Assembly: GCF_900070355.1 (NCBI RefSeq)
Contig: NZ_LN849456.1
Span: 620,001 to 684,000 of the forward strand
Direction: 5' to 3'
DNA: 64,000 nt
Origin: Devriesea agamarum
GTDB taxonomy: Bacteria > Actinomycetota > Actinomycetes > Actinomycetales > Dermabacteraceae
Below, piece after piece: positions 480 to 57,838 of the stretch. A model generated the notes under the pieces. That model saw only the letters and a list, made by a program, of their open reading frames with translations, was not told the origin of the DNA and ran no database searches. Every line of letters begins with the position of its first letter. The first letter of the stretch is position 1. The translations under genes were made by a program, and so were the position numbers.

Positions 480-482
480 GGT

Positions 483-3688: not shown

Positions 3689-3712
3689 AACACAATTTCT
3701 TTCATGCTATAT

Positions 3713-3889
3713 TTACCGTTTACGTGTCCGCTGAACGACTTCGTGCAGGACGTATTTCCTTTTGAGGCGGCGGCAGTTGGGGCAATAGGTGCGCAGGATG
3801 GGGAGAATGTTACCGCTAGGGGTAACAATTGAAGCGCTCTCGGTGACGGGAATGCTTTCGCAGCGTGGGCATTTCCTTGGGGCTGGCAT
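3713..3889 (-). CDS. Small zinc-ribbon phage protein
   Basis: A 58-residue ORF starting MPAPRKCPRCESIPVTES and ending in a basic tail (VLHEVVQRTRKR). Two Cys pairs (CPRC near residue 7 and CPNC near residue 36) are spaced as in a zinc ribbon. It lies between two same-strand phage genes with short gaps. It probably binds nucleic acid or mediates protein contacts; nothing more specific can be said. Confidence 0.6.
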   Translation of the reverse strand: MPAPRKCPRCESIPVTESASIVTPSGNILPILRTYCPNCRRLKRKYVLHEVVQRTRKR

Positions 3890-3894
3890 AGGCG

Positions 3895-4230: not shown

Positions 4231-4251
4231 GGCTGTTTTCCTTTCGAGGAC

Positions 4252-5544: not shown

Positions 5545-5582
5545 TTCTTTGTCCTTTCGGTAGGGGTTATTGATTTGTAGCG

Positions 5583-5819
5583 TTAATGAAGCGGCTGCAG
5601 TTCATCCGCGCCACCCTCTTCCTTGCTGTAGACATCGGCGAGAACACGTTCTATCGCTTCTTGTGCGGTTGGGTCGTCAACCAGGGGCGGCACATAGTCG
5701 CCGTCCCATATCGCGTGACAAATGCGGGCCAGGCGGTGAACTTTTCGCGCCGACAAGTGTGCACCCATGTCTTGCGCGACCTCCTGAATCATGCGCTTTG
5801 TTTCCACGAAATCAGGCAT
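5583..5819 (-). CDS. Small helical phage protein, unknown
   Basis: A 78-residue, predominantly helical acidic protein (VETKRMIQEVAQDMGAHLSA, then AQEAIERVLADVYSKEEG). ATG at 5819 has AGGGG eight bases upstream. It precedes the BRO-N-like array by about 40 bases and follows the antirepressor gene. No family is recognised. Confidence 0.55.
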   Translation of the reverse strand: MPDFVETKRMIQEVAQDMGAHLSARKVHRLARICHAIWDGDYVPPLVDDPTAQEAIERVLADVYSKEEGGADELQPLH

Positions 5820-5882
5820 AGTTCACCCCTGGTATTGCATCGTTGCGATGCCGTCAGGCGACGGATTTAGAGTTAGAGATGG

Positions 5883-6698: not shown

Positions 6699-6931
6699 GA
6701 CGCACCACCGCACGTCACGACGGACTTGCGGGAACAAGCACTGCCTGCTACCATAGCTGGACTCCTTAGGGGAGTATGAGTCACGTCGGGGTTATCTGCC
6801 AAGACATGTCCGGCGTGGCTCTTTTTTGAGGACATAACGCGGCCCGTAAAGGTAGCGTTATGGGTTGACGAGGCCCTGGACATCTGCATTGTCTGGGGTC
6901 CGCTTTCGTTGTATCCCATTGTAGCATTCAT
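6695..6931 (-). CDS. Small Ser/Thr-rich phage protein, unknown
   Basis: A 78-residue polar protein rich in Ser, Thr, His and Met with two late Cys. The composition is odd, but the context supports translation. ATG at 6931 has GAGGAC seven bases upstream and lies two bases after the previous gene's stop, and its own TGA overlaps the antirepressor ATG. It may serve mainly as a coupling reading frame for the antirepressor. No family is recognised. Confidence 0.5.
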   Translation of the reverse strand: MNATMGYNESGPQTMQMSRASSTHNATFTGRVMSSKKSHAGHVLADNPDVTHTPLRSPAMVAGSACSRKSVVTCGGAS

Positions 6932-6933
6932 GG

Positions 6934-7344
6934 TCAGTCCTCAGTGGCTTTCGGCTTGTTTTCTTTGGAAATTTTTTCGTAATGCTTATGCACGAAGTAC
7001 GTGAGGTAGTAATTAACCATCACCCCACTCTCTAGCAGGACCTCGGCAATTGGATCGTCTAAGCAGCCTATTGCGGGGGGCTTCATTTTCTGAATTTCGT
7101 CGCTGTGCATATTGCGAGCCGCCGAGAGCATGACGTCTTGGGTTATAAAAACTCCAGCGCACACTTCTCCGCTTCCGACATAAGCTTTCACCGACCAACC
7201 TTCGATACCTAGGACGGCGAGCATATTTTCGGCATACCCGTAGCCGAATGCGCTAGCGACATCTGAAGCTAAATACAGGTACTTGTCGCCGGTCCGAATG
7301 TATCGGATATTGACACCTTCAAGCTCTGGAACCTCAATCTTCAT
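6934..7344 (-). CDS. BRO-N-like phage protein
   Basis: A 136-residue protein. VNIRYIRTGDKYLYLASDVA followed by SAFGYGYAENMLAVLG fits the BRO-N start (turn, aromatic pair, DVA-x-x-FGY) better than the shorter paralogues. VFITQDVMLSAARNM corresponds to the next strand-helix. The C-terminal helix (VNYYLTYFVHKHYEKISKEN) is longer than in the 100-residue members. ATG at 7344 has AAAGGGA upstream. No KilA-C domain. Probably related by duplication to the antirepressor family; role unknown. Confidence 0.6.
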   Translation of the reverse strand: MKIEVPELEGVNIRYIRTGDKYLYLASDVASAFGYGYAENMLAVLGIEGWSVKAYVGSGEVCAGVFITQDVMLSAARNMHSDEIQKMKPPAIGCLDDPIAEVLLESGVMVNYYLTYFVHKHYEKISKENKPKATED

Positions 7345-7400
7345 CGGTCATTCCCTTTCGATTCGCCTTCCAGGTTGGGGCGGTTTAGTAGTGCTTCCTT

Positions 7401-7688
7401 TCAGTCGTTCCGCTCTGCGCCACACAGAACACACCTATGCGTATGACTCTGAAGGGCCTCTTGGATATTCCGTAGAAACGCAGACTCCCGAATGAGGCCA
7501 CTGTCGTGACTTATACCCTTGTTATCGCCTACGGGACGCACATCATCCCAACCGTTTTTCACATCAAAGCCTGGAGGTGCCACGCTAAATATATCTTCAA
7601 GCGCTTCGGGAAATAGGTACCACCTATCGCCATCCTCGCCCATAATCCACCTTGCCGTAGGAGTGATTTCTAACCTGCCGATTTTCAT
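7401..7688 (-). CDS. Small phage protein, paralogue of the next gene upstream
   Basis: A 95-residue protein starting MKIGRLEITPTARWIMGEDG, then RWYLFPEALEDIF and a central Gly/Asp loop. A motif LIRESAFLRNIQEAL is shared almost exactly with the gene at 7721-7987. The C-terminus ends in CVLCGAERND, half of a zinc knuckle. ATG at 7688 has AAAGGAAG upstream. The front half (residue pair WY before a helix) is compatible with a degenerate BRO-N start, but this is weak. Confidence 0.6.
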   Translation of the reverse strand: MKIGRLEITPTARWIMGEDGDRWYLFPEALEDIFSVAPPGFDVKNGWDDVRPVGDNKGISHDSGLIRESAFLRNIQEALQSHTHRCVLCGAERND

Positions 7689-7720
7689 TTTGCTTCCTTT
7701 CGGTTGTTATTTCGCGTCTC

Positions 7721-7987
7721 TTACGCCAGATTGCGGGACATAGAGTACGAGAGCTCTTCGCCAAGCATTCTTAGAAATGCAGATTCTCGAATGAGGGCGA
7801 CAGGGAGGGGGAACTCTTGAACCCAATCTTCTTTGCATATGTCCTCTGGATAGACGGACGCTACCCCCTTACCGCCTGACATGCTAGCCAAATCTTTGCG
7901 CACCTCGTCTAGGTCATACCATCTAACCCCGTCCTCCTCTACGAATGGTGCCGCCGTCGTTTTAATTTCTATGTTGCCGATCTTCAT
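7721..7987 (-). CDS. Small phage protein, paralogue of the gene downstream
   Basis: An 88-residue protein starting MKIGNIEIKTTAAPFVEEDG with RWYDLDEVRKDLASM and the shared LIRESAFLRMLGEEL motif. Of two adjacent ATGs (7990, 7987) the second is better spaced from AAAGGGAG, and it aligns with the MKIG start of its paralogue. A small upstream ORF ends in a TGA that overlaps this start. Function unknown. Confidence 0.6.
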   Translation of the reverse strand: MKIGNIEIKTTAAPFVEEDGVRWYDLDEVRKDLASMSGGKGVASVYPEDICKEDWVQEFPLPVALIRESAFLRMLGEELSYSMSRNLA

Positions 7988-8160
7988 CATGCTCCCTTTC
8001 TTTTGAATCGGACCCCTAGCGGGGACTCTGCTTGCTTTGTCTCCTCGCCCCACAATTTTCGCCCGGCGAACCCACCCAGTTTTAGCCGCGTAACCAGCGC
8101 CTCTAGCTCGGCCACTAAAAGTGACCGAGTTCTAGCGCTCACCGGGGCCTTTGCGTCCAA
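7987..8160 (-). CDS. Possible small phage ORF with TTG start
   Basis: An open frame between an in-frame stop at 8188-8190 and a TGA at 7987-7989 that overlaps the next gene's start. There is no ATG; TTG at 8160 would give 57 residues including a regular helix (TRSLLVAELEALVTRLKL). The overlap with the following ATGs fits the coupling habit of this operon. The lack of a clear start keeps confidence low; it could be a remnant. Confidence 0.3.
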   Translation of the reverse strand: MDAKAPVSARTRSLLVAELEALVTRLKLGGFAGRKLWGEETKQAESPLGVRFKRKGA

Positions 8161-8332
8161 TAGGGTTCCCAGTGGGTCGCCTCCCGTCTAGGCGTAAAGT
8201 ATGAAACACGGGCGCACATCGTTTAGAGTCTGAGCACGAGAACAGCGACTATGGATATAGTTGTGGCGGGTCTTCCCCTTTCGTTTGGGATGGTTTGGTA
8301 TTTAGGGTTGTGTAAGCTTGGGTTATGTAAGG

Positions 8333-8644
8333 CTAGGTGGCATTCTCAGCTATATGCTTTTTAGCTTCTTTGACGAGGTCATAGGGGTTTAGAGAATAGG
8401 AACCTTCCCATGAGCAACTGAGACATGATGGCGAACAGATTCCAAAATAGCTGATCACAACGCAACGATGCTCCCGGGACACATCTTCAATGCCAAGGTT
8501 ATCTTTCCAATGCGATTTCAGCTCTTTACGTACACCTCGGTTAAATTTGTCATTGCAAACAGTACTAGACCATTCACAGTCATAGCATTCTAGAAATGAA
8601 CGATTGGATTTCAGGCGCTCAACGAGAATAACGTGCGCGGTCAT
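8333..8644 (-). CDS. Phage protein with two Cys pairs
   Basis: A 103-residue protein with two similar halves. CYDCEWSS (residues ~20) and CLSCSWEGSY (residues ~75) each hold a C-x-x-C followed by a Trp, and each is followed by a basic helix. It looks like an internally duplicated zinc-knuckle protein, or a pair of half ribbons making one site. ATG at 8644 overlaps the upstream stop (ATGA). Function unknown. Confidence 0.6.
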   Translation of the reverse strand: MTAHVILVERLKSNRSFLECYDCEWSSTVCNDKFNRGVRKELKSHWKDNLGIEDVSREHRCVVISYFGICSPSCLSCSWEGSYSLNPYDLVKEAKKHIAENAT

Positions 8645-9159
8645 GGCCGCCTCCCGTCAAATGCGCTCTTAGCGTCTGCGGGGTGATCTATCGTGGTGCT
8701 ATCGACTGCGGTGTCGGATTCCGCAGGAGCGTCAAGATAGGAAATCTTATGGCTACTCTCATCGTCAACACCTTCGGACTTTGGCCAATCGACCTTAAGG
8801 CTGAAGGCGTCTTGAGTGGTGGTCTCAGGATCAAAACCACAGATGATGTCCTCGACCGCGTTGCAGAGCTCGTGAATGATTCGGTCACCGGGGAACGACG
8901 CGGCTTCTGGCTCGCAGGACAACTTGACGTCGAGGTTAAGGATGAACTCACACACCCGAACCCCAGGAACGGACATCAACGGCTGTGGATACCTGCGAGT
9001 GCTGCTGTGCACCTGATTTATGATCGTCCGCTCCACCCGAGTCCCGACCGGCTTGAAGACCGGGCGGACACCGTTTACCTGTGACTCGTAATTCGGATCG
9101 GGAATAATTTTGCCACCCCATGCCACTTGAGGTCTGGGGAGCGGCCTTTTACGGTTCAT
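8641..9159 (-). CDS. Phage protein, unknown
   Basis: A 172-residue protein. The N-terminal half is basic and contains RVERTIINQVHSS; the middle has VRVCEFILNLDVKLSCEPEA and IIHELCNAVEDIICGF; the tail is acidic. ATG at 9159 has AAGGTG upstream. It ends in an ATGA overlap with the Cys-pair gene. A rightward open frame on the opposite strand is treated as a shadow. No family is recognised. Confidence 0.6.
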   Translation of the reverse strand: MNRKRPLPRPQVAWGGKIIPDPNYESQVNGVRPVFKPVGTRVERTIINQVHSSTRRYPQPLMSVPGVRVCEFILNLDVKLSCEPEAASFPGDRIIHELCNAVEDIICGFDPETTTQDAFSLKVDWPKSEGVDDESSHKISYLDAPAESDTAVDSTTIDHPADAKSAFDGRRP

Positions 9160-45571: not shown

Positions 45572-46228
45572 CTACACGCCGAGCATCGACAACCAGCTCG
45601 GCAAAAAGCCGAAGAACAGCAAACACAGCACGAGCGCATACCAGATGACTGTCAGGGAGATCCAATGACTAGTCAGCCGACGAATCACTCCCCCGGCCGG
45701 AACAAGACCGCTGTTCACGCTATACGCAAGATAGACGAAGAACATCGGAGCGGTCGCCGCCCACACTCCTAAACAGTTCGGGCACAGCATGTGGATGATA
45801 AAGACGGCGTCGATAATTAAAAAATGCACGAACCCGAAGGCGAGAACCAACCCGATCAGGATCGCGCGTTCAAACCATCGTGGAAGGTTCGCCCCCGCAG
45901 CCAAGAGCAGGCCAGCTGTTCCCAAAATGGCGTAACCGGCCAGGCCCAGGAACATATTGGGAAACCCAAAGATAGAGGCCTCCGGGGTCATCATCACTGA
46001 TCCACAGGAGATAAACGGATTGATATCGCAGCCCAGGTGCGTTCCCGGGTTTTCAAGCATCCGAATTTTGTCGATGGACAGGACCAGAGCAAGAACCCAC
46101 GAAATCGTCGAGAAAATAAGCAGTATGACCCCGGCAACGCGAGGATTAATTCGTTGATGCCGCGCGCGGATTTCAGCGTCGATCTCCGCCCGCAGGGCAT
46201 CATCGTCCGGGGTCTCCAGATCGGTCAT
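45572..46228 (-). CDS. Vitamin K epoxide reductase (VKOR) family protein
   Basis: A 218-residue membrane thiol oxidoreductase with about five hydrophobic segments. Active-site pairs: HLGCDINPFISCGSVM (loop Cys pair) and HMLCPNCLGVWA (C-x-x-C). VKOR proteins in actinobacteria reoxidise DsbA-like partners using quinone. The ATG at 46228 overlaps the oleD stop (ATGA), making it the last gene of the olefin operon. No DsbA-like gene lies nearby. Confidence 0.88.
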   Translation of the reverse strand: MTDLETPDDDALRAEIDAEIRARHQRINPRVAGVILLIFSTISWVLALVLSIDKIRMLENPGTHLGCDINPFISCGSVMMTPEASIFGFPNMFLGLAGYAILGTAGLLLAAGANLPRWFERAILIGLVLAFGFVHFLIIDAVFIIHMLCPNCLGVWAATAPMFFVYLAYSVNSGLVPAGGVIRRLTSHWISLTVIWYALVLCLLFFGFLPSWLSMLGV

Positions 46229-47205
46229 GGCATCCTTTCGCTCCTGTACCAAGCCGCGAGTTTATCGAGGCCGTCCTCGAAGGATACGCGTGGGGTCCAG
46301 GACAAACGCTGCCGTGTACGCCGCTGGTCAAACCAATGGGCCGTAGATAGTTGTTCGGCAAGGAATTCCGTCATCGGGGGCTCATCGGCGCCGGGATGTT
46401 TGTCCCACACTCTCTCCACCACGCGTCCAGCCCATCGAGCAGCACCCGAGGGAAGCCGCAACCGCGGGCCTGGCACGCCGGCAGCCGCACAGAAACCGCC
46501 CAAAACTTCAGCCACAGTTCGAGGCTGTCCGTTCGTGACCACGAAGGACTCGCCGTGTACTCGCTCAATTCGGTCCATGGCTGCAATGATCGCATCCGCC
46601 GCATTCGTCACATAGGTGGTGTCAATGAGCGCATGGCCACGGTCGAGCAGGGGCAGCGTGCCCCGGCGCCCCCGATCAACGATTCTCCCCACCAACTGGG
46701 TGTCGCCCGGTCCCCAGACGACATGGGGGCGAATCGAGACCACCTTCAGCTCATCGCTGTCGGCGGACATCGCTAAGAGTTCAGCGGCCGCTTTACTGCG
46801 CGCATAGTTGCCGCGTGCCCGTGCCGGATCAGCGGGTCCCGTCCCCTCCCCCACAATCGAATCACCCACGTGCGCGACTGAAGGGGAGGAAATATTGACC
46901 AGTTTCCCCACCCCGATTGCTCGCATGGCATCGAGAAGGTGCGCGGTGCCGCGAACATTGACGTTCTCAAACTCCTCATAGGAGCCCGCGAATGACACTT
47001 TGGCCGCGAGATGAATGACCGCATCCATGCCATCCACCGCGCGGCAAACATCACCGGGCTCGGATAACGATCCGGGTCGGTCTTTCACCCCGGGAATTGA
47101 CGCGGGTCGGCGTTGGAAGGTTGTCACGAGGTCACCGCGGTCGCGCAAAGTTTCCGCAACGCATCGTCCGAGCATTCCCGAAGCGCCGGTCACCAGAACT
47201 TTCAT
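46225..47205 (-). CDS. oleD: OleD, 2-alkyl-3-oxoalkanoate reductase
   Basis: A 326-residue extended short-chain dehydrogenase. NAD(P) site MKVLVTGASGMLGRCVAETL; catalytic Ser region NISSPSVAHVG and YARSK with the Tyr-x-x-x-Lys pair; ALIDTTYVTNAADAIIAAMD typical of the 3-beta-HSD group. In the olefin pathway it reduces the OleA beta-keto acid to the beta-hydroxy acid. It starts within a four-base overlap of oleBC. Confidence 0.87.
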   Translation of the reverse strand: MKVLVTGASGMLGRCVAETLRDRGDLVTTFQRRPASIPGVKDRPGSLSEPGDVCRAVDGMDAVIHLAAKVSFAGSYEEFENVNVRGTAHLLDAMRAIGVGKLVNISSPSVAHVGDSIVGEGTGPADPARARGNYARSKAAAELLAMSADSDELKVVSIRPHVVWGPGDTQLVGRIVDRGRRGTLPLLDRGHALIDTTYVTNAADAIIAAMDRIERVHGESFVVTNGQPRTVAEVLGGFCAAAGVPGPRLRLPSGAARWAGRVVERVWDKHPGADEPPMTEFLAEQLSTAHWFDQRRTRQRLSWTPRVSFEDGLDKLAAWYRSERMP

Positions 47206-49889
47206 GGGCGTCCCACCGGCAGCCCGCGCAATGCTGCCTCGGCCCAGCGAGACAGCGCAGCACGATCGATTTTCGAGTTGTGGCGAATATCCGTGGGGAG
47301 CGTGACGGTTGTGAACACCGCCGCCACATCGCTTCCGGTCATTTTCCGCACGGCATGGCGGACTGCCTCGGTCAGCGGGGCTGGGGCCGTGCGTGGGCGA
47401 CGAGCTCGACCCGGCCGATACTCCTCATCGGTTTCCACGACCAGCACAATTTGTCGGGTCCCATTGGGACCGACGGCACACGCTCCGGCGCGTCGAACCC
47501 CTGGCACTGATTCTGCCGCTGCTTCCAGAGCGACCGGGGTGCGCAGCCCGTCAGCTGTGGCGATAACGTGTGCGGCCCTGCCTTCGATCCACAGCCGACC
47601 CGTCTCGTCGAGGTGTCCGACATCGCCGGTAGCGTGCCAGGTTGGGAAGCGGTGCGCGGTCCGAGTGGTATCCCAGAGCATGAGGTAGCGGTCGCGGGCA
47701 TGCGGGGCACGGATCAAAACCTCACCGGTCACACCGGGCTCTGTCGTGGGTTCGGATCCAGTGCGACCGAGCTCATCCATCGGAGCAATCGCCACATCGA
47801 CACGGCGAGCTGGGCGGCCCACACACACGCCGTTGCCTTGGCCTGCGTCCTCAATGCCTGGCAGGTCAATGGTGGTCACCACGAGGCATTCGGTCATGCC
47901 GTAGGGCGTGAGCAGATCCGCGTCGGGCATCAAGGCGCGCAGCTGCCGCAGAAGATCAGCCGGGATCGGTGCTCCTGCTGACAGGAAGACTTTTACCCGG
48001 GCAAGCGCTGCCCTTTCGCGGTCATCGAGCTCAGCTTCGGTCGCAAGCACATTGGCTAGCGCTGCCGGGGAGGTAAACACAGCGGGCTCGCCAAGCCGGT
48101 CGATAGCGTGGGCGAGGGCGGAGGCCGTGAGCGTGGCCGGGGAGGTGACGTCCATATCTGGAACCACTGAGGGAGCTCCCACTGCGGGCCCGAGCAGTGC
48201 GAACGGGGCGAAACCAGCCACCAATCCGAGCTCGGGTCCGAGACCGGTCGCTTCGCCCAGAGCACTGAACATGGCGGCCAGCTGGCGATGGGTGTACACC
48301 ACGCCTTTGGCTGGGCCGGTGGAACCCGAGGTGAACAGCACAGCCGCGTCCGCGTCAGGTTCTGGCCAGTCTCCAAGAACATCCGGGCTCATGGCGAGCA
48401 GTTGGCTGCCTTCGTCTGCTAGCTGTGCTAAGGAGGTCTCAACTCCGAGCGCGATGCGATCGATAGTGGGCAGAGTCTTCACCGAAATACGCTGACCTGG
48501 CCAGCCCAGGGCGCGGGCACCCGCGAGGGCCTTTTCCACGCCGATCACATATTGCGAATGCGAGCCGACCACAGCCCGGGTCAGCCCCTGTACCCCGAGT
48601 CCAGCATCGGCCACCACCGCCACCGCACCGATCCGTAGACAGGCGTACATGGTGGCTGTTAAGTCCGCTCCCGGAGGGACCAACACGTTAACTCGGTCAC
48701 CGGGGTGTACCCCGAATGCGAGCATACCTGCAGCAATGTCACGGACCCGGCGGGCGAGCAGGTCCCAGCTAATCGTGCGGGATCCCCCACCGTCTGCTTC
48801 GGATCGCATTTCAACCACGGCGCCGCGATCCCGATAACTTGGATCAGCGGCTAAATCTTCGATCCGCTGCCCTAACTGGATAAATGGTGCTGGCTGGGCG
48901 GCATCGGCGATCGTGGGAGGTGCCGGGCGGCGCTGAGCATTGCTGTCGAAAGTGTCGCTGAGCCAGCGGCAGACGATGGCGGCGACGTCGGCATCTTCCC
49001 ACACTAGGTGGCTCGCGTCTTCAACCCGGTGCACGTCGGCCTGGGGCATCCGAGCAATCAGATCGCGCAGGTACCGATCAGAGAAGACCACATCACGCGG
49101 TCCCCACACGAACAAAGCGGGAACGTCGAGGTCGCGGATGCCGTCGGCTACTCGTTCCAAGGTGGGCCGGCTGGGATGCCCGGGTTCGAAGGGAATGTCG
49201 GCGACGAATTGTTCGATGCCGCGCCGGCGAGCCCGAGTTCGGTAGGGCGCAAGGTAGGCGTCTCGCACCTCGTGGGGAAGCGGCGGCTTGCTCAGAGCGA
49301 GTGTCGTCCGCAGGAAGCCGTCGGTCAGTGACGTCGAGGTGGGTAGAACCCCGGGACTGGTCGCAAGACGTAAAGCCCCCGGAAGGTGTTCAAAAATCTC
49401 CTGATAAACGCCCGTGTTGGTCAAGATCACGCCAGCTAACTGGTGCCGGTTATCCAGCGCCCACCCGAGGGACACCAAACCGCCCCAGTCGTGACCAACA
49501 GTGATGACTTTCCCTCGCAGGGACAGCGTGTCGGTGAGCAAAGAGAGATCCGTAATCCGGTCTTGCAGCGTGCGACGGCGCTCGGTGCGCTCAGACCATC
49601 CCATCTCCAGCTGGTCAACGGCGATCACTCGCCATGGGAGTTCAGCGGAGGCAAGCGGCTCCATGAGACTGCGATAGAGGAAGGACGACGTGGGATTGCC
49701 ATGCACACACAGCAGTGTTCCCACCGGGGTCTGCCCGTTCTCGGCGAGGAGCGTCTGATTATCGAGCAGGTGCCAGCGGCGTTGCTGTCCGGTGGAGTCG
49801 GTCGCGAGTACGGTGCGATGCACTCGTGGGTCGACGCCAGGCTGCTCTGGAACCTCCGCGATATCGCCGGTTTTCCGGATGGTTTTCAC
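47202..49889 (-). CDS. oleBC: OleBC fusion: beta-lactone decarboxylase plus beta-lactone synthetase
   Basis: An 895-residue fusion. Residues ~20-310 form an alpha/beta hydrolase of the haloalkane-dehalogenase type (LCVHGNPTSSFLYRSLMEPL, nucleophile VGHDWGGLVSLGWAL, late His in EDASHLVWED); this is OleB. Residues ~330-895 form an AMP-forming ligase-like domain (VLFTSGSTGPAKGVVYTHRQ, then LLTPYGMTECL and GRLWIEGRAAHVI); this is OleC. OleC closes the beta-hydroxy acid to a beta-lactone and OleB removes CO2 to give the internal alkene. The GTG at 49889 overlaps the oleA stop (GTGA) and has GGAGG upstream. The fusion is the form known from Micrococcus and relatives. Confidence 0.92.
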   Translation of the reverse strand: MKTIRKTGDIAEVPEQPGVDPRVHRTVLATDSTGQQRRWHLLDNQTLLAENGQTPVGTLLCVHGNPTSSFLYRSLMEPLASAELPWRVIAVDQLEMGWSERTERRRTLQDRITDLSLLTDTLSLRGKVITVGHDWGGLVSLGWALDNRHQLAGVILTNTGVYQEIFEHLPGALRLATSPGVLPTSTSLTDGFLRTTLALSKPPLPHEVRDAYLAPYRTRARRRGIEQFVADIPFEPGHPSRPTLERVADGIRDLDVPALFVWGPRDVVFSDRYLRDLIARMPQADVHRVEDASHLVWEDADVAAIVCRWLSDTFDSNAQRRPAPPTIADAAQPAPFIQLGQRIEDLAADPSYRDRGAVVEMRSEADGGGSRTISWDLLARRVRDIAAGMLAFGVHPGDRVNVLVPPGADLTATMYACLRIGAVAVVADAGLGVQGLTRAVVGSHSQYVIGVEKALAGARALGWPGQRISVKTLPTIDRIALGVETSLAQLADEGSQLLAMSPDVLGDWPEPDADAAVLFTSGSTGPAKGVVYTHRQLAAMFSALGEATGLGPELGLVAGFAPFALLGPAVGAPSVVPDMDVTSPATLTASALAHAIDRLGEPAVFTSPAALANVLATEAELDDRERAALARVKVFLSAGAPIPADLLRQLRALMPDADLLTPYGMTECLVVTTIDLPGIEDAGQGNGVCVGRPARRVDVAIAPMDELGRTGSEPTTEPGVTGEVLIRAPHARDRYLMLWDTTRTAHRFPTWHATGDVGHLDETGRLWIEGRAAHVIATADGLRTPVALEAAAESVPGVRRAGACAVGPNGTRQIVLVVETDEEYRPGRARRPRTAPAPLTEAVRHAVRKMTGSDVAAVFTTVTLPTDIRHNSKIDRAALSRWAEAALRGLPVGRP

Positions 49890-50917
49890 CAGGTGACCTC
49901 CATCATTCCGGTATTGATACCGGAGCCCACTCCGAGCAGTACGATCTTTTGTCCGGGGCTGAAACTCTCCGAACTCTTTGCCAAGGTCATGGGCAGCGAC
50001 ACTGGGCCGACATTGCCCCAATCCGGGAACGTCACGGGAATCTTGTCGATATCCACACCGGTAGCTTTGGCGAATGCTCTGGTGTACACCATCGAAATCT
50101 GGTGGGTGATGAAGGTGTCAGCGCTGCGGAAATCAAATCCGTCCTTGTGCGCATCGCGCCACGCATCAACAACCAGGGCGAGGCCATGTTCGAGCAGACC
50201 CTTGGTGTCGGTCCTCATGTGGCCAAAGCTTCCGATGCACAGGTGATGGTGCTCGCTGCCTGCCCGGGAGACGGTACCAACCAGTTTGTGCCCGTTGGGG
50301 TGCCGATCAGCGGGGCCGAGCACCGCAGCTGCCGCACCGGAACCAAGAGTGAGGGAAGCGAACTGATACTGGAAATCTTCGCGGGTCGCGTCCTTCGAGT
50401 TCAGGCGGTCAATCGTGCCCCGATGCGTAGATTCCATATCTTCAGCGCCGACCACCAGCGCGTAGTCGATCTGACCTGCGTCGATCATATTGGCGGCGAG
50501 CGTCATACCGTTGACGAATCCGAGGCAGGCATTGGTGATATCGAAGTTCATCGCAGAGGTCGGCAAACCCAGACCCGCGTGCACGGCGACGGCGACCGAG
50601 GGCTCCAGGTTCCGGCGCGACACAGAGGTGTTGATGACGATCCCGATCTGCTCGCGCGACACCCCCGCCCGAGCGAGAGCGCGTTCGGCGGCGGTGACCG
50701 GGGCTTGTACCCAGCCCTCCTCGTCTTTCCACCAGCGGCGTTCAAAAACTCCTGACACCCTCTGCAAGGTTCCCCGGGGCAAGCGCAGACGTTTGCGCGC
50801 AGGAGCCAGCCAGTCATCGATCTGGTCGGAGGTCACCACCACCGGTGCCTCTACCGCCGTGATCGACAGGAGGGCAGCATTGCTATGGCGGAATGTTGTG
50901 TTGCCGTTCAAGCGCAT
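49886..50917 (-). CDS. oleA: OleA, long-chain acyl-CoA thiolase-like condensing enzyme
   Basis: A 343-residue thiolase-superfamily enzyme that joins two fatty acyl-CoAs head to head. Active-site Cys in MNFDITNACLGFVNGMTLA, His in DTFITHQISMVYTRAF, Asn/Gly-rich GNVGPVSLPMTLAK. The sequence after the ATG at 50917 (TTFRHSNAALLSITAVEAP) resembles known actinobacterial OleA N-termini; a GTG at 50944 is less likely. First gene of the operon oleA-oleBC-oleD-VKOR. Confidence 0.92.
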   Translation of the reverse strand: MRLNGNTTFRHSNAALLSITAVEAPVVVTSDQIDDWLAPARKRLRLPRGTLQRVSGVFERRWWKDEEGWVQAPVTAAERALARAGVSREQIGIVINTSVSRRNLEPSVAVAVHAGLGLPTSAMNFDITNACLGFVNGMTLAANMIDAGQIDYALVVGAEDMESTHRGTIDRLNSKDATREDFQYQFASLTLGSGAAAAVLGPADRHPNGHKLVGTVSRAGSEHHHLCIGSFGHMRTDTKGLLEHGLALVVDAWRDAHKDGFDFRSADTFITHQISMVYTRAFAKATGVDIDKIPVTFPDWGNVGPVSLPMTLAKSSESFSPGQKIVLLGVGSGINTGMMEVTW

Positions 50918-51137
50918 ACCTTCGTCGTCTATCGTCTGTGGCACGGGAAATCCCGTGCCATTGTCCCACCCAGTGCGCGACCCTACGGAAGCGTAGCCGA
51001 TATGTCTCCATCAAAGATGGTCGTGCCGCATACAGCGTGGCATATTGACCGTTATGCACGCGATGACCGCGCGGAGACGCGGTGAGGGTCGCGTCACAAA
51101 ACAGGCGTCTCGTACGTCATCGACCAGCGTTCATACC

Positions 51138-52163
51138 TTAAATGGTCAGTCCTAAGAATGCTTGCGCTGTCAGCGAATCCGCTGCATTGTCGTCTCGGTT
51201 CGACGATTCTCGCCCCGTGAGTCGTTGCCGGGCATCGACCGTCCTCGGCTCACAGGACACCGTGGACGGGCTGAGATCAGCGACGTCATTCCATTTTTTA
51301 AGGGGCATGATCTCCACGGGGAACGTGTGATGAGAATTAGCGGCAAGCGGCTGGCGCAGAGTCTGGATAGCCTGCAGAACGTGCGTGCCTGGGATGCGTC
51401 GAGCGTCGACACCACCGAGACTCATCCCGGCAATCGCCCGAGAATCGACCTCTACCCGTACTCTCACGCCTCGGGGAACGGGCGCAGGCCCAACAGAGAA
51501 CACCGTTACCGCCGCCGGGACCCAGATATGCCGCTCAGCAGCGGGCTTGAACGGGGTCCACACCACCCCGGTTTCCATCCCCCATCTTTGATCAGTTCGA
51601 CTATCGACCTGTTCCGCTTTTGACTCGTGCTGGGTCTGGTTCGCATGCGTATCGATCACGACGTTGAGCGGTTGCGGATGAGAGATGACGTCATGCGGGT
51701 AGGCGAGGTCTCGACCGGCGCCGAGCGTCACAGTAGCTGACTGACCGGGTTCTATGGCCTCGCTCACCTCCACCGTTGCAGACATGAGGTCTCCCTTGCC
51801 GGATGGCTCCGACACATAATGGCAGCGCAGGGGTTTGCCTTCATGAGATACCAGCGGAGAGGCGTTGACTTGGTATACCCGTTGGTCCCAGGTCATGGTG
51901 ATCCTCATGCCCGGTTTGATGCCGTCGGGAGTTGTCGGTGTCATGATGCCACCTAACAGCCGAGGCAACGTCACTGTATTGCCTTCGGCTGTGGCAACTG
52001 TAAACGTCTCAGATGACACTGTGAATCGCGGTGCATTATGAGGATCAGCAAGGGCCGAAGGGGCATTCGTGACGAAGACAGCGAGGGTTCCTATCCCACC
52101 GGCAAGGAATGCACGGCGTCGCAGATTGGCAGTCGATTGTTGGTGGGTAACCATAGTCTTCAT
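51138..52163 (-). CDS. Tat-exported protein of unknown function
   Basis: A 341-residue protein with a twin-arginine signal (LRRRAFLAGGIGTLAVFV, cleavage near SALADPH). The mature part is beta-rich with no Cys; it contains LLGGIMTPTTPDGIKPGMRI, ATVEVSEAIEPGQSATVTLG and RGVRVRVEVDSRAIAGMSLG, suggesting one or two immunoglobulin-like domains. I recognise no enzyme motif. It lies ahead of the membrane-protein island on the same strand, 284 bases from it. Confidence 0.75.
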   Translation of the reverse strand: MKTMVTHQQSTANLRRRAFLAGGIGTLAVFVTNAPSALADPHNAPRFTVSSETFTVATAEGNTVTLPRLLGGIMTPTTPDGIKPGMRITMTWDQRVYQVNASPLVSHEGKPLRCHYVSEPSGKGDLMSATVEVSEAIEPGQSATVTLGAGRDLAYPHDVISHPQPLNVVIDTHANQTQHESKAEQVDSRTDQRWGMETGVVWTPFKPAAERHIWVPAAVTVFSVGPAPVPRGVRVRVEVDSRAIAGMSLGGVDARRIPGTHVLQAIQTLRQPLAANSHHTFPVEIMPLKKWNDVADLSPSTVSCEPRTVDARQRLTGRESSNRDDNAADSLTAQAFLGLTI

Positions 52164-52447: not shown

Positions 52448-53044
52448 TTAATATGGAGGCGGCCCCGCAAGCCAAGGCGCAACATAACTATCCCACACTA
52501 AAACCTGAATAATAGAACTGACCACGAAGACGATTGAGGGCACAACCGCTCGCATATACGGGTTAATGGGCCGACGAAAAATATCAGTGAAGAATATGAT
52601 GCCGCAGGCCAAAAGAATAGGTAGACCAGCAAGGATATTCTGCACAGGTACGGGCCAACACGTTGGGTAGACGCAGCTTCGGGAAGGATCTATGAACTCT
52701 AAACTTGATCCGAAATGAGTACCCAAACACCAAATAAACGAAAGCCATACCGCAAAAACAGGCCGGAAAGATACAAACCATGTCCAGTCCTCACTCCGAA
52801 CAGGGGCGATTGCAAAACCGACCGCTAACAGAACGATTAAGGTCACCCATTCGGTCGAGGGCGCCGTGCCGTGGATCACCGAGTGCAACTCGGTCATACG
52901 TACATACGATAAGCCAGAGTCACCTATCCCCATGAGGCCTACAAGGACTGTACATAAAACAAACGATATAACTCCACCCAGAAATCTCAATAAACCCATG
53001 GTAATCCGTGCAACGCGTTCTCGGGTTACGATACTGTTTGACAC
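52448..53044 (-). CDS. Four/five-TM membrane protein, tandem paralogue 1
   Basis: A 198-residue protein with about five hydrophobic segments. Family landmarks: GIGDSGLSYVRMTELHSVIH, VGFAIAPVRSEDWTWFVSFR, FIDPSRSCVYPTCWPVPVQN, TDIFRRPINPYMRAVVPS and VWDSYVAPWLAGPPPY. GTG at 53044 has AAGGAA upstream. The Cys pair (C-x4-C before WP) sits in a loop after the third hydrophobic segment and could form a disulfide. No known family is recognised. Confidence 0.75.
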   Translation of the reverse strand: MSNSIVTRERVARITMGLLRFLGGVISFVLCTVLVGLMGIGDSGLSYVRMTELHSVIHGTAPSTEWVTLIVLLAVGFAIAPVRSEDWTWFVSFRPVFAVWLSFIWCLGTHFGSSLEFIDPSRSCVYPTCWPVPVQNILAGLPILLACGIIFFTDIFRRPINPYMRAVVPSIVFVVSSIIQVLVWDSYVAPWLAGPPPY

Positions 53045-53161
53045 TTAAAATTCCTTTCTTGACAATCGACAACTGGGCTCTAAAACCAAAGACAATTTCT
53101 TGTATTAGCTACCTCAACCCGATAAGCTCAAGTGCAGAGTATATAATTTTAAGGCTTTGAA

Positions 53162-53764
53162 TCACTGCCACCACGACGGGGGTGGACCGTTAAGAAACTG
53201 AAGGATGTAACGATCCCACACCCAAAACTGCATGACAGTTAAAAATATATAGATAACCGATGGCAAAATTGCTCTTAGATAAGTATCTATCGGCCTGCGA
53301 AAAACATCAGTTATAGCAAAGACAGCACAGGCAATCAACAGTGGCGCACAAGCAAGCATTCCTTGGAAAGGTTGAGGCCAGCAACTCGAATAGACGCAGT
53401 GGTCAGAGGGCCAAAAAAACTCAAACGAGGTGATAAAGCTCAAACCGCCACACCACGCTACCACCAACCATACGGCAAGCCCTAAACGGAATGATAAGAA
53501 CCAAAAAGAATTCTCACGCCGAACGGGAGCGATAGCAAGCCCAGTGGAAAGCACGACATTCATTAACACCCAAGCGGATGACGCAGCCAGACCATGCACA
53601 ACTCCACGGGGTTCAACTAACCGCACTCTTGATAGCCCAGAATTGTCTACACCAGAGATGAACGCTACACACGTGCACACCAGAAGCGAGGCGATCCCTA
53701 AAAATATCCGAAAGACAATCACTCTAAATTGAATAATTTCTTCTCGAGTTATTTTCTCTTGCAC
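53162..53764 (-). CDS. Four/five-TM membrane protein, tandem paralogue 2
   Basis: A 200-residue paralogue: GVDNSGLSRVRLVEPRGVVH, TGLAIAPVRRENSFWFLSFR, FFWPSDHCVYSSCWPQPFQG, TDVFRRPIDTYLRAILPS and VWDRYILQFLNGPPPSWWQ. The GTG at 53764 is chosen because AGGAGG lies five bases before and the length then matches the siblings; the frame stays open to 53830. It is separated from paralogue 1 by 117 A+T-rich bases. Confidence 0.75.
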   Translation of the reverse strand: MQEKITREEIIQFRVIVFRIFLGIASLLVCTCVAFISGVDNSGLSRVRLVEPRGVVHGLAASSAWVLMNVVLSTGLAIAPVRRENSFWFLSFRLGLAVWLVVAWCGGLSFITSFEFFWPSDHCVYSSCWPQPFQGMLACAPLLIACAVFAITDVFRRPIDTYLRAILPSVIYIFLTVMQFWVWDRYILQFLNGPPPSWWQ

Positions 53765-53890
53765 GATGCCTCCTCTCGTTAGCGCGTAAGTATTCACATA
53801 AACTGGGTTGCTCGATCTGCTACGGCACACGTTTGGTCTAAAATTTAGACGACCGATTTACAAGATATTCGTAATGCGCCCTGACATTAA

Positions 53891-54478
53891 TCAATAGATA
53901 GGCGGTCCACTAAGAAAAGGGAGGACGTAGCTGTCCCACACTAAAAACTGAACGGCAGTCAAAGTTAAATATACAGCTGATGGCAAAACTGCTCTTACAA
54001 AACCGTTTGATGGCCTGCGAAAAATATCAGTAAGTAATGCGATGACACAAGCTATCAGCAGGGGAAGCCCTGATAATATATCTTGAAATCCTAGCGGCCA
54101 ACAATTCGCATAGACACACTGATCAGATGGTTCCACAAACTCAAACGCTGCCCCTATTCGTGCCCCAGCAAACCATACAAATAGCAACCAGACAGAAAGC
54201 CATGGACGGAACCACAAGAAAGCAAAGGAATTTTCTCGTCGGACAGGAGCGATAGCAAGGCCCAGCGCAAATACGGCAATGTACATAAGCCACTGTGTAG
54301 ACGGTGCTATTCCTCGGCTAACACCGGAAGGAGCGGCTAGGATTACACTCGACATTCCGGAATTAAGTACACCAAATGCAAAAGATATGTAGGTGCACGT
54401 TATCAGAGATGCGATACCTAAAGTGAACCGCAAAAAAGATGCAGCTATTTTTTTGACGCTACCTTGTGAGATATCCAC
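53891..54478 (-). CDS. Four/five-TM membrane protein, tandem paralogue 3
   Basis: A ~195-residue paralogue: GVLNSGMSSVILAAPSGVSR, LGLAIAPVRRENSFAFLWFR, FVEPSDQCVYANCWPLGFQD, TDIFRRPSNGFVRAVLPS and VWDSYVLPFLSGPPIY. GTG at 54478 has AGGAGG upstream at nine bases; TTG at 54484 is an alternative. Closest by eye to paralogue 2. Confidence 0.75.
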   Translation of the reverse strand: MDISQGSVKKIAASFLRFTLGIASLITCTYISFAFGVLNSGMSSVILAAPSGVSRGIAPSTQWLMYIAVFALGLAIAPVRRENSFAFLWFRPWLSVWLLFVWFAGARIGAAFEFVEPSDQCVYANCWPLGFQDILSGLPLLIACVIALLTDIFRRPSNGFVRAVLPSAVYLTLTAVQFLVWDSYVLPFLSGPPIY

Positions 54479-54598
54479 TGCCAAACACCTCCTCTAAATT
54501 TTATCTTAAGCACATATATGTCAGTTTCATGTTAACGATTTATAGCTTTTTCGGCGCATCATGGAGGTAGTACACTAGTTCCCCTATACACTACCCAC

Positions 54599-55201
54599 TC
54601 ACATCAAAAAATGGGGTGGCCCACTGAGGATGGGAAGAACATGCGTATCCCATATAAAATATTGGATTATTGTGGATCCGACAAAGACAACCAGTGGTAC
54701 GGCTATTCGCACAAATACATGTGAAGGCCAGCGAATAACATCCAATATAAAGATCAGCGTACACACCAACAACAGAGGCGAGCCAGCCAGTAGTTCTTGA
54801 ACTGGAGTCGGCCAACAACTTGGATACGCACATTGCGTTGAAGAATCCAAGAACTGCAACTGAGATATAAACCAAGAACAAAGTGCCCAAAAAAGCACTA
54901 TCCATATTGTGAGCAACGGCCTAAAAGATAGAAACCAGATAGAGTCTTTTTTTCGACTAGGGGCAATAGCAAGTCCGATCACAATGAAAGAAAGCAACTC
55001 TAAATCTTCAGCAGAAGGAAACGTGCCGTAGTCGATAAGTCGCGGTTGAACCATACGGACATGAGAAAGCCCGGAGTGTCCAAGCCCGTACCCAAACGCA
55101 CCAATCGTGCATAGCACTGCCGAAACTATGCATAAAATAATGCGTAATATGCTTGCCGCAAACTCTTTGTTTGGCATATTTGGTGCACATAATTTTATCA
55201 A
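54599..55201 (-). CDS. Four/five-TM membrane protein, tandem paralogue 4
   Basis: A 200-residue, most divergent paralogue: GLGHSGLSHVRMVQPRLIDY, IGLAIAPSRKKDSIWFLSFR, FLDSSTQCAYPSCWPTPVQE, LDVIRWPSHVFVRIAVP and IWDTHVLPILSGPPHFLM. TTG at 55201 with AAGGAAG upstream is the likely start; ATG at 55177 lacks a ribosome site. It is nearest to the large DUF1906 gene, 246 bases downstream of its stop. Confidence 0.72.
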   Translation of the reverse strand: MIKLCAPNMPNKEFAASILRIILCIVSAVLCTIGAFGYGLGHSGLSHVRMVQPRLIDYGTFPSAEDLELLSFIVIGLAIAPSRKKDSIWFLSFRPLLTIWIVLFWALCSWFISQLQFLDSSTQCAYPSCWPTPVQELLAGSPLLLVCTLIFILDVIRWPSHVFVRIAVPLVVFVGSTIIQYFIWDTHVLPILSGPPHFLM

Positions 55202-55447
55202 AATTTCTTCCTTCCGATGAAAACTTATAGCTTTATATTACCTGTAAAGCTGATTATAAATAGCCTCCAATATTTCTTGCAGCTAAGAATATATTTGAGA
55301 AGTTTAATGAAATCTAAGCCATATCGGTTTGTCTACGCTGACAATACTTCCGGCACCAACAATCTGCGATCGATACGCTAATCATTAAGACGAATCATGG
55401 GATATTTACGTAACATTTTGCAATGCAGCAGAAAGTAAATAACATCC

Positions 55448-57838
55448 TCAGGATCCGAATCGCTCCATCGCTGCAGCGTACCCCCTCCCCAGTTGCTCTG
55501 CCTGGAGTTGGTTGGGTAAAGCTGCGATTCCAGCCGCCTCCTTAAGCGCTTCGGGGGTTTTAAATATATTTGACGCGCCGTAATCAATACCATCAGCCAA
55601 CTTTTTGAATGCCGCACTTACATTTTCCGGCTTTCCACCAAATCTCTCCTTATAGAACCTGCGAACCCTTGTTTTAGAATCTTCTTTCAGTAGCACTCGC
55701 AAGCAGTCCGATAAAGTGGACTCCGGATTCACTTTAAGAGCTTTTGCGACGAGCCATGCATCCGCATCAGCAATAACATCTGCTCGGTCAAATGCGCTAG
55801 GCTTGTCAGTTCCAAGTATTGTGGATGTCCAAGTAAACAAATCAGGCTTAGGGCTATCCTTAAGCCTCTCATAGTTACCCCATAATTGAAGCAAATCTAG
55901 AGGCCAACCACCCAAGTCGCCTAAACCGTAGTCATCAAATGTTGTTGACAATCCCCACGTGCGATAGCCTAAGGCTGTAGCGGCGAAATGTGCAACATCC
56001 CGTTTAGAGTCAGGTCTTGCTGGAGATAATTTCCCAATAAACTGCTCTGCCACTGACCGAGCAACCTTGGAGCCTTTTGGAATGTCACCTTCTGGAAGAT
56101 ATATATCCCACTTACCCCCATAAGACCCTTTACCATAGTTAGGCTTTCGTAAATAATTTAAGATGTAATCTGAAATCAGCGGTGCATATATGTCGATACG
56201 GAAGAGGATGCTGCTGTTACTCCTAAGCGCCCTCTCCGCTGCAACTTCAGCACGTACCACCCACTCAAAGACAGCATCGAAGCCAGTAGCCGATGGTGAT
56301 CCATCCCGTTCAACAGGTGGGGATATCACCGTTGAGAGGTCCACAGACGCAGCCTTCTTGGAAACCATCACGTGGTCAACATTGAGCTTTGCCGACCCCA
56401 CCGGTTCGTTGGACACCTCGACGACCTGGTTGTAATGCCAGTTGCTCGGCATAGGAAAGCCCATATTCCCAGACCATCCTGTCGACATACCCGCGATAAA
56501 CGACCCCGACGTCAACCCCTCATCGGCAAGGATCTGACATATATTTCGAGTGCCATAGACTCCGATCTTGAAACTCCCCGTGACCGCGGAATCCATAACC
56601 TCTTTCACGCCCCTAAAGAATTCCTTCACCGGGCCAATAATGGTGTCCTCCGCGACATCCATGTCCACGCTGAAAAAGATCAGAGTGTCTTTAGGAAAGC
56701 CCAACACTCGGCCCCGTTCCAACGCTTCAAGTCCCTGGGTGCGTCCAGCTTCACGGGTCATGGTGCTGACATTATTGTTAAACCGTTGATGTAGCGGGAA
56801 CAGTCGCAGTCCTTGTGCTTTCAGCAAATCGAGTTCCGGGGAAGTAATAAACTTTCCGGCACCCACCGTGTAGCGCCCGATATGGGTGTAACCACTAGCC
56901 TTAACACCAGCTGCTTGAGCCGCATCGAGTTGAATATTTGTGTCGATTCCCTTGGTTTTGATACCGGTGTCACCAGAAGAAACCAGGAGGCTAGCCCACG
57001 TAGTGAAATCACCCTTGCCGGTCTCCGGTATCTCCATAAAGTTTTGGAACAGGCGAACTTTTCCAGCTAAGGCTTCGCTGAATACGCCGTTGAGGTCAAC
57101 GCCGTATCGATTAAAAATTAGCGCCGCTTGAAAAAGCCGTACGAAATGCGTGGCGCCGTCGGATGACCCAACCGCAAGCGAGGCTTTCTCCTTGAGGCCC
57201 GCCTTGGTTCCCGGCCCGAAGTTGCCATTAGCGACCCCATCGGCCATGCCAATCTCATATTGGAGAGCGAGCATGAGAGCATTTTGAACCTGACGGGGAA
57301 ACAGTCCGTCGCAGGGTACTAGAGCAAAGTCTCGGCGGCCAGAGTATGTTTTATTGAGCCACTGCTGAACACCGCGAATGCCATTAGTGCCCTTCCCGCG
57401 GATAGGTATTTTGTAGGCGTCCATGGAGAGCAGGGACGCCATGAGCTTGACCTCTAAGACCGGGTTGTCCGCGCCGAGACCAAGGTCGGAGCGCGCACTT
57501 CCCAGAGATGGGATAAGGGTGGCAAAAGATACCGGACTGTTGGCGTAGAGACCGCTGTACCCCTTGCACCACAGCGCGCCACTGATAACCCGAACGACAT
57601 TCTCCGGAACGGAGCTACTCGCGTTCAGGACACCGAACTTGGTCTGGAACGCACTGGTGCTCTGCGCTCCCCAGCCAGAGGCGACAGGAGAAATGCCCAT
57701 CTCTGCCTGCATAGCTCTGCGCAGCGCGTAGATGGTGTTCCACCCCGTAATGCCGTCCTCGGGGATCTTCACCCACCCAGCTACGGTTGCATAGGTGGCG
57801 TTCAGCCATTTTTGGGCATCGAGGATCTGCTGGTCCAT
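55448..57838 (-). CDS. Large peptidoglycan-binding/DUF1906 protein with unknown C-terminal domain
   Basis: A 796-residue protein. Residues ~1-300 hold repeated peptidoglycan-binding-like units (MDQQILDAQKWLNATY, IRGVQQWLNKTYSGRRDFAL, VPCDGLFPRQVQNALMLALQ, NGNFGPGTKAGLKEKA). Residues ~310-520 form a DUF1906/Rv2525c-like glycoside-hydrolase-like barrel (KGIDTNIQLDAAQAAGVKAS, IGRYTVGAGKFITSPELDLL, LIFFSVDMDVAEDTIIGPVK, KIGVYGTRNICQILAD). The last ~250 residues are unassigned but ordered, with KRDVAHFAATALGYRTWG, GDLGGWPLDLLQLWGNYERL and DRADVIADADAWLVAKAL. No signal peptide is visible. ATG at 57838 has AGGAG upstream; a longer frame to 57901 has no site. It heads the A+T-richer island. Confidence 0.8.
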   Translation of the reverse strand: MDQQILDAQKWLNATYATVAGWVKIPEDGITGWNTIYALRRAMQAEMGISPVASGWGAQSTSAFQTKFGVLNASSSVPENVVRVISGALWCKGYSGLYANSPVSFATLIPSLGSARSDLGLGADNPVLEVKLMASLLSMDAYKIPIRGKGTNGIRGVQQWLNKTYSGRRDFALVPCDGLFPRQVQNALMLALQYEIGMADGVANGNFGPGTKAGLKEKASLAVGSSDGATHFVRLFQAALIFNRYGVDLNGVFSEALAGKVRLFQNFMEIPETGKGDFTTWASLLVSSGDTGIKTKGIDTNIQLDAAQAAGVKASGYTHIGRYTVGAGKFITSPELDLLKAQGLRLFPLHQRFNNNVSTMTREAGRTQGLEALERGRVLGFPKDTLIFFSVDMDVAEDTIIGPVKEFFRGVKEVMDSAVTGSFKIGVYGTRNICQILADEGLTSGSFIAGMSTGWSGNMGFPMPSNWHYNQVVEVSNEPVGSAKLNVDHVMVSKKAASVDLSTVISPPVERDGSPSATGFDAVFEWVVRAEVAAERALRSNSSILFRIDIYAPLISDYILNYLRKPNYGKGSYGGKWDIYLPEGDIPKGSKVARSVAEQFIGKLSPARPDSKRDVAHFAATALGYRTWGLSTTFDDYGLGDLGGWPLDLLQLWGNYERLKDSPKPDLFTWTSTILGTDKPSAFDRADVIADADAWLVAKALKVNPESTLSDCLRVLLKEDSKTRVRRFYKERFGGKPENVSAAFKKLADGIDYGASNIFKTPEALKEAAGIAALPNQLQAEQLGRGYAAAMERFGS

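What the first reader, a model, noticed from the sequence alone, without database searches (positions are those of the whole stretch)
52448..57838. DUF1906 effector-like protein followed by four tandem paralogues of an unknown membrane protein
A 796-residue protein (peptidoglycan-binding units, DUF1906 barrel, unassigned ~250-residue C-terminus) is followed on the same strand by four paralogous ~200-residue membrane proteins sharing SGLS-x-VR, GLAIAP-x-R, CVY-x-x-CWP, FRRP and GPP-Y motifs. The block looks A+T-richer than its flanks. A large wall-targeted protein with a variable-looking C-terminus beside an amplified membrane family recalls toxin/multi-immunity or secreted enzyme/anchor loci. 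The layout is seen; a toxin-immunity or antagonism role is inference. DUF1906 as a wall-related fold is established knowledge.
Basis: partly seen in the sequence, partly recalled or inferred. Interest (0 to 1): 0.8.

Follow-up and report, generated by a model that had tools for sequence, protein, structure and literature searches.

The report
TelC-like wall toxin with immunity array
This locus most likely makes an antibacterial protein that binds cell walls and carries, at its tail, a relative of a known enzyme that destroys the cell-wall precursor lipid II, followed by four related membrane proteins that probably protect the owner; the toxin type was predicted in 2025, but the protective array and the evidence that tail and array travel together are new.

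Summary
The layout is real. A 796-aa protein (peptidoglycan-binding units, DUF1906/Rv2525c barrel, about 280-aa C-terminal domain, CTD) is followed by four tandem paralogues (38-49% identical, five hydrophobic segments each) in an A+T-rich block.

The CTD has no Pfam match, but its family profile finds the lipid II phosphatase toxin TelC (5UKH) as best hit in the whole PDB, collinear on H, GW.GD, D..AD.D and R. The same N-terminal half carries at least three unrelated C-termini across Actinomycetota and Bacillota. Small membrane ORFs follow 12 of 23 other TelC-type genes against 6% of background ORFs. Third-codon GC breaks sharply between N-terminal half (0.63) and CTD (0.42), so CTD and paralogues look like one swapped cassette.

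Best explanation: a TelC-type antibacterial effector with a multi-immunity array. A 2025 paper (PMC12419801) already described PGBD + Rv2525c barrel + TelC proteins as potential conflict systems, beside a secreted Ig-pair or a 3-TM protein. The five-segment membrane family, its fourfold array, its co-occurrence with the secreted partner, and the cassette break are additions. Toxicity, immunity and export are untested.

The parts
55448..57838 (-). 796-aa effector/toxin: three PG-binding-like units, DUF1906 (Rv2525c-like) barrel, TelC-like C-terminal domain; no signal peptide seen
   Evidence: Pfam (one PG-binding unit above cut-off, the others by eye); homologues; whole-length match to phrog_15213
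56300..57838 (-). conserved N-terminal half (PG-binding units and DUF1906), third-codon GC 0.62; the module that is kept constant while C-termini change
56372..56905 (-). DUF1906 / Rv2525c-like glycoside-hydrolase-like barrel
   Evidence: PF08924 E=9.9e-34, residues 333-510 of the 817-aa reading
55451..56299 (-). TelC-like toxin domain; invariant or near-invariant H638, W666, D669, D708, D712, D714, R745 (numbering of the 817-aa reading)
   Evidence: A2/A3 conservation; PDB profile hit 5UKH = TelC; helical AlphaFold2 model pLDDT 83
54599..55201 (-). membrane paralogue 1 (next to the toxin; predicted cognate immunity protein)
53891..54484 (-). membrane paralogue 2
53162..53764 (-). membrane paralogue 3 (200 aa from the GTG with a GAGGAG site)
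52448..53044 (-). membrane paralogue 4
51138..52163 (-). 341-aa secreted partner with twin-arginine start (LRRRAFLAGG); homologous to the protein beside the toxin in L077, L078, L015 and, by profile, L017 and L081; taken to be the Ig-pair protein of PMC12419801
   Evidence: (phmmer E=5e-19 to L077)
52448..56330 (.). low-GC cassette: CTD plus four paralogues, between a normal-GC N-terminal half and a normal-GC partner gene

Best explanation
The locus is an antibacterial effector with a multi-immunity array. The N-terminal half (PG-binding units and DUF1906 barrel) holds the protein on the wall of a target cell. The C-terminal domain, a TelC relative, reaches the outer face of the membrane and cuts the phosphate link of lipid II or a similar polyprenol-linked precursor, stopping wall synthesis. 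The four five-segment membrane proteins, with a conserved outward-facing cysteine pair, sit in the owner's membrane; the first copy blocks the owner's own toxin, the others block toxin variants of rivals. The CTD and its immunity genes were acquired as one cassette on a resident N-terminal module. Shown here: domain layout, TelC homology, CTD swapping, cassette composition break, recurrent small membrane neighbours. Inferred: enzymatic activity, wall targeting, immunity function and specificity, and export, whose route is unknown.
For: (1) An expanded CTD profile of 21 sequences finds 5UKH as best of 177,635 PDB sequences (E=5.6e-4; 0.0049 without the phage sequence), collinear on the conserved H, GW.GD, D..AD.D and R. 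5UKH is TelC, a lipid II phosphatase active only outside the cytoplasm (PMC5555719). An H4-type Asp with a second Asp six residues on, and a conserved Arg, match the published TelC traits (D174, D180, R211). (2) The same ~490-aa N-terminal half carries TelC-like, a second conserved type and TM-tailed C-termini. N- and C-terminal identities to the window protein do not correlate over 15 proteins (rho -0.38). (3) Third-codon GC changes inside the gene, 0.629 to 0.421, at residue 525 (0/500 permutations). (4) The first 3' ORF is a small protein with two or more hydrophobic segments in 12 of 23 other TelC-type loci versus 23 of 358 background ORFs. (5) Tandem paralogues of unrelated families also flank TelC-type genes in L020 (three) and L044 (two lipoproteins). 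(6) Solitary homologues of the paralogues in genomes without a full-length toxin fit orphan immunity genes. (7) TelC loci carry multiple tipC paralogues, four in S. gallolyticus of which only the first binds TelC (PMC6193138); TsaI arrays have five TM segments per protein (PMC9484751).
Against: No toxicity or immunity has been measured. Foldseek and VIA-align did not recover TelC from the CTD model, so the link rests on a modest profile E-value. The closest full-length homologue (L047/L077, 49% identity) has the secreted partner next door and no membrane gene, so the membrane genes are not obligatory. The toxin lacks a signal peptide and the genome has no detected WXG100 gene, so the export route is open. 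The paralogue model was poor (pLDDT 54).
Confidence: 0.68

Rival explanations
1. The protein is a wall-remodelling or endolysin-like enzyme of the owner or of a former prophage, and the membrane proteins are holin-like or anchoring partners.
For: DUF1906 plus PG-binding occurs in phage endolysins; several TelC-type relatives sit in viral contigs between replication genes and HNH/terminase genes, next to an opposite-strand four-TM gene.
Against: The CTD is related to a toxin, not to a wall hydrolase. Holins are not expected as four diverged tandem copies or on the opposite strand. No phage genes flank the window locus; flanks are housekeeping-like. phrog_15213, which covers the whole protein, has no lysis label.
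Confidence: 0.13
2. The secreted Tat-signal partner (51138-52163) is the immunity protein or export partner, and the four membrane proteins do something else, for example lipid handling or transport.
For: The nearest full-length homologue has only this partner and no membrane gene; partners with Tat-like starts adjoin 9 of 19 scanned actinobacterial loci against 6 of 289 distant ORFs.
Against: The partner gene has normal GC and does not travel with the low-GC CTD cassette, whereas the membrane genes do. It cannot be the general solution because Bacillota and prophage loci lack it but keep small membrane neighbours.
Confidence: 0.1
3. A+T-rich islet of unrelated genes: the paralogues are an independent insertion beside a DUF1906 gene and have nothing to do with it.
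For: The membrane family is not next to DUF1906 genes elsewhere; there is a gap of about 246 bases between toxin and first paralogue.
Against: The GC break falls inside the toxin gene at the domain junction, so CTD and paralogues look alike in origin; small membrane neighbours recur at TelC-type genes.
Confidence: 0.09

Closest known systems
PGBD + Rv2525c-like barrel + prok-TelC proteins of the Lipocone superfamily paper (PMC12419801, section 31)
   Same: Same set of domains; TelC-type domain; Actinomycetota; neighbours are a secreted Ig-pair protein or a small TM protein; proposed there as a potential conflict system engaging the cell wall
   Different: The paper calls the Ig-pair and the 3-TM (3TM-CCDN) genes mutually exclusive; here a secreted partner and membrane genes occur together (also in L015 and L078). 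The window's membrane family has about five segments, is fourfold and does not align with 3TM-CCDN-like proteins that I picked. The paper places these among systems that usually lack immunity proteins
TelC-TipC of Streptococcus intermedius (PMC5555719, PMC6193138)
   Same: Toxin domain homology; extracytoplasmic site of action expected; multiple tandem immunity paralogues
   Different: TelC has an LXG N-terminus and leaves by T7SS; TipC has one TM segment and an outside beta-sheet domain. The Enterococcus plasmid relative does have a one-TM neighbour of that topology (L094)
TspA-TsaI of Staphylococcus aureus (PMC9484751)
   Same: Tandem array of diverged five-TM immunity proteins directly downstream of a toxin gene
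   Different: Toxin domain depolarises membranes; T7SS-secreted; no sequence relation tested or shown
WP_000344083.1 'glycoside hydrolase domain-containing protein' of Enterococcus plasmids
   Same: Same N-terminal module and TelC-like CTD with a small membrane-anchored neighbour; about 280 plasmid records
   Different: Mobile plasmid cassette among recombinases; single one-TM neighbour; no Tat-signal partner seen

Membership tests
prok-TelC toxin domain (Lipocone superfamily) | Sequence homology to TelC | tested here: met
   5UKH is best PDB hit of the CTD profile, E=5.6e-4, 0.0049 without the phage sequence; not found with the earlier profiles A2 and A3
prok-TelC toxin domain (Lipocone superfamily) | Active-site pattern: His in H2, Asp in H3, Asp in H4, Asp six residues later, Arg in a C-terminal helix | tested here: met
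   H104, D135, D174, D180, R211 of the CTD, 90-100% conserved; helices 99-115, 132-144, 172-190, 208-220 in the model
prok-TelC toxin domain (Lipocone superfamily) | Lipocone fold | tested here: inconclusive
   Model is all-helical, pLDDT 83, but Foldseek and VIA-align did not list 5UKH
prok-TelC toxin domain (Lipocone superfamily) | Lipid II phosphatase activity | not testable with these tools
   Needs an enzyme assay
T7SS LXG toxins | LXG/WXG N-terminus and a T7SS | tested here: not met
   N-terminus is PG-binding units and DUF1906; no WXG100 match in the genome
Polymorphic toxin systems | Constant N-terminus with exchangeable C-terminal toxin domains | tested here: met
   At least three unrelated C-termini on one N-terminal half; composition break at the junction. 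That the other C-termini are toxins is not shown
Polymorphic toxin systems | Immunity gene directly 3' of the toxin | tested here: inconclusive
   Small membrane ORF in first 3' position in 12 of 23 other TelC-type loci; immunity itself untested
3TM-CCDN proteins | Three TM segments, two Cys, one Asp and one Asn conserved outside | tested here: not met
   About five hydrophobic segments, two conserved Cys, no invariant Asn; no profile relation to 3TM two-Cys neighbours that I picked. The paper's own alignment was not available
TipC immunity proteins | One N-terminal TM and an outside beta-sheet domain | tested here: not met
   Paralogues are polytopic

The most novel reading that the evidence does not exclude
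A polymorphic antibacterial toxin class that uses neither T7SS nor Sec: the signal-less folded toxin is carried out through the Tat pore by its Tat-signal partner (hitchhiker export), the partner gene staying constant while CTD plus immunity cassettes are swapped. Twin-arginine starts are seen on partners of two kinds (Ig-pair-like and VanY-like) beside toxins that have none.
Probability: 0.17. Interest if true: 0.82.

Novelty: new variant of a known kind. Interest (0 to 1): 0.6.

Why it matters
Antagonism among Actinomycetota is less well known than in Proteobacteria and Bacillota (my general knowledge). The data turn a domain architecture, so far only listed as a potential conflict system, into a testable polymorphic toxin family: a wall-binding carrier with swapped tails, a tail related to a characterised lipid II phosphatase, and a candidate four-gene immunity array. 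The same type of gene sits on hundreds of sequenced enterococcal plasmids and in prophages of Gardnerella and its relatives, where I found no study of its role in the searched literature.

Tried and rejected
Pfam, NCBIfam and PADLOC gave nothing for the CTD or paralogues. PDB profile searches with 11 and 22 CTDs missed TelC; adding the Enterococcus, Lactiplantibacillus, Streptomyces and Lak-phage relatives found it. Foldseek and VIA-align on the CTD model listed no convincing fold, and TelC was not among the rows. The paralogue model was too weak to search. Pattern scans for the membrane family in 84,980 genomes and in viral contigs found no relative; plasmids none. Equating the paralogues with 3TM-CCDN: no profile match. 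Promoter and terminator scans were at chance level.
Full report
WHAT IS THERE. On the - strand of the window lie, in transcription order, a 796-aa protein (55448-57838), four ~200-aa membrane proteins (54599-55201, 53891-54484, 53162-53764, 52448-53044) and a 341-aa protein with a twin-arginine signal-like start (51138-52163). Gaps between the four are roughly 115-125 bases and a purine-rich ribosome-binding-like site precedes each; consensus promoter and terminator scans did not exceed chance. Pfam gives PG_binding_1 and the Rv2525c/DUF1906 barrel for the large protein and nothing for its last 280 residues or for the paralogues. The four are 38-49% identical to each other, with invariant Cys124 and Cys129, Asp154, Asp185 and a GPP end. 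Hydropathy shows about five segments; basic residues cluster at the N-terminus, around 81-94 and 155-165, so by the positive-inside rule the Cys pair and the C-terminal tail face outward (topology inferred).

THE CTD IS A TelC RELATIVE. Homologues of the whole protein came from Actinomycetota and Bacillota and from viral contigs. The CTD alignment keeps H104, W132, D135, D174, D178, D180 and R211. With 21 sequences the profile's best hit in the whole PDB is 5UKH (E=5.6e-4; next hit 0.51), collinear on the H region, GW.GD, D..AD.D and the R/F region (the H and GW part aligns only as a weak separate stretch). It stays first without the Lak-phage sequence (0.0049). [quoted passage not shown] PMC5555719). 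The Lipocone paper gives as TelC marks an Asp six residues after the H4 active-site Asp and an Arg in a C-terminal helix (PMC12419801): D174, D180 and R211 fit. The AlphaFold2 model is all-helical with pLDDT 83, but structure searches did not list TelC, so the fold is not confirmed by structure.

THE TAIL IS EXCHANGEABLE. The first ~490 residues are mostly 32-51% identical to the window's across the family while the tails fall into at least three unrelated types: TelC-like; a second conserved type in L049, L050, L052, L065, L066 and L097; and TM-tailed ends in Bacillota. Among 15 TelC-type proteins, N- and C-terminal identities to the window protein do not rise together (Spearman -0.38, p 0.16): for example L012 is 46% (N) and 34% (C), while prophage L013 is 36% (N) and 41% (C). 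Within the window gene, third-codon GC drops from 0.629 to 0.421 at residue 525 (interval 512-575; none of 500 permutations), the junction of DUF1906 and CTD. The paralogues share the low value (0.37-0.49); the partner gene does not (0.61). CTD and paralogues thus look like one acquired cassette between an older N-terminal half and an older partner gene. Smaller drops near the same junction appear in L077, L078, L044 and L081 but not L012.

SMALL MEMBRANE NEIGHBOURS RECUR. In 12 of 23 non-redundant TelC-type loci other than the window, the first ORF on the 3' side is a small protein with at least two hydrophobic segments, against 23 of 358 background ORFs (ORF choice was heuristic). Orientation varies; in prophages the neighbour is usually convergent. 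The families look different from locus to locus. Tandem paralogues occur again in L020 (three membrane proteins, 51-96% identical) and L044 (two lipoproteins, 88%). The Enterococcus plasmid version is followed by a protein with one TM segment and an outside domain, the topology of TipC. Homologues of the window's membrane family were found in three genomes of the same order, one apparently broken, none next to a DUF1906 gene; one of these genomes has a weak DUF1906-only match elsewhere. The known parallels are close: TelC operons carry several tipC paralogues, and in S. gallolyticus only the first of four binds TelC (PMC6193138); TsaI arrays hold 2-16 diverged five-TM proteins behind TspA (PMC9484751).

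THE SECRETED PARTNER AND EXPORT. The 341-aa protein is homologous to proteins beside the toxin in L077 (E=5e-19), L078 and L015, and it aligns with those of L017 and L081 in a profile built with them. I take it to be the 'secreted protein with a pair of Ig domains' of PMC12419801; Pfam does not name it. Other loci have instead a Tat-start protein weakly like Peptidase_M15_4, probably the paper's VanY-type partner. Tat-like starts were found on neighbours in 9 of 19 scanned actinobacterial loci against 6 of 289 distant ORFs (the count leaves out a doubtful tenth in L089); the window, L097 and L100 partners, which the scan missed, also have RR starts by eye. None of the scanned toxin proteins has a signal by the same test. 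The genome has TatC and no detectable WXG100 gene (absence in such a search is not proof). Export is therefore unexplained; Tat hitchhiking is the most novel reading, release on lysis the plainest.

MECHANISM AND LIMITS. Most likely: the wall-binding N-terminal half docks the effector on a target wall, the CTD cleaves lipid II or a similar lipid-linked precursor at the outer membrane face, and the membrane array protects the producer, paralogue 1 against its own toxin and the others against variants. Domain homology, CTD exchange, cassette composition and neighbour enrichment are shown; activity, immunity, specificity and route are inferred. The strongest doubt is that the nearest full-length relative (L047/L077) has the partner and no membrane gene.

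NOVELTY. PMC12419801 already names the architecture and its two kinds of neighbour and reads them as potential conflict systems; it is the only paper in the library that mentions 3TM-CCDN, and the few papers naming DUF1906 appear from titles and abstracts to concern other matters. Added here: a separate five-segment membrane family in a fourfold array, co-occurrence of a secreted partner with membrane genes, the CTD-array cassette break, further tail types on the same carrier, and the plasmid and prophage distribution. Hence a new variant of a known kind.

Noticed in passing
window 1-9159: Prophage-like stretch (SSB-like, RecT-like and nuclease-like ORFs by eye) with a run of about seven small - strand ORFs of 95-151 aa, one weakly Bro-N, beside a full antirepressor (Bro-N + KilAC, 5883-6737); A+T-richer than the rest.
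   Followed up: partly
window 46225-50944: Cluster resembling ole (olefin/beta-lactone) genes: ACP synthase III-like (49886-50944), a fused alpha/beta-hydrolase + AMP-ligase (47202-50021) and a 3-beta-HSD/epimerase (46225-47205).
   Followed up: partly
L094, L095 (Enterococcus plasmids): A TelC-type DUF1906 protein (WP_000344083.1) with a one-TM small neighbour is nearly identical on about 280 PLSDB Enterococcus plasmids, among recombinases and IS1216, beside mercury genes in one of the two records read.
   Followed up: partly
L013, L072, L073, L087, L090: In Gardnerella-type and related prophages the TelC-type gene plus opposite-strand small membrane gene lies among VRR-NUC/SNF2-like and HNH/terminase-like genes (named by eye), a cargo position.
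   Followed up: partly
L098 (Prevotella Lak phage), 2800-3573: Lak megaphages encode a stand-alone TelC-like domain protein, readable as one frame only with TAG as an amino acid.
   Followed up: partly
L018 9989-12307 (Atopobium minutum): The toxin-like gene carries one in-frame stop near the domain junction, so it looks broken in this record.
   Followed up: no
L049, L050, L052, L065, L066, L097 C-termini: A second conserved C-terminal type with invariant RKAL, WE and STG motifs that matches nothing convincing in Pfam or PDB.
   Followed up: partly
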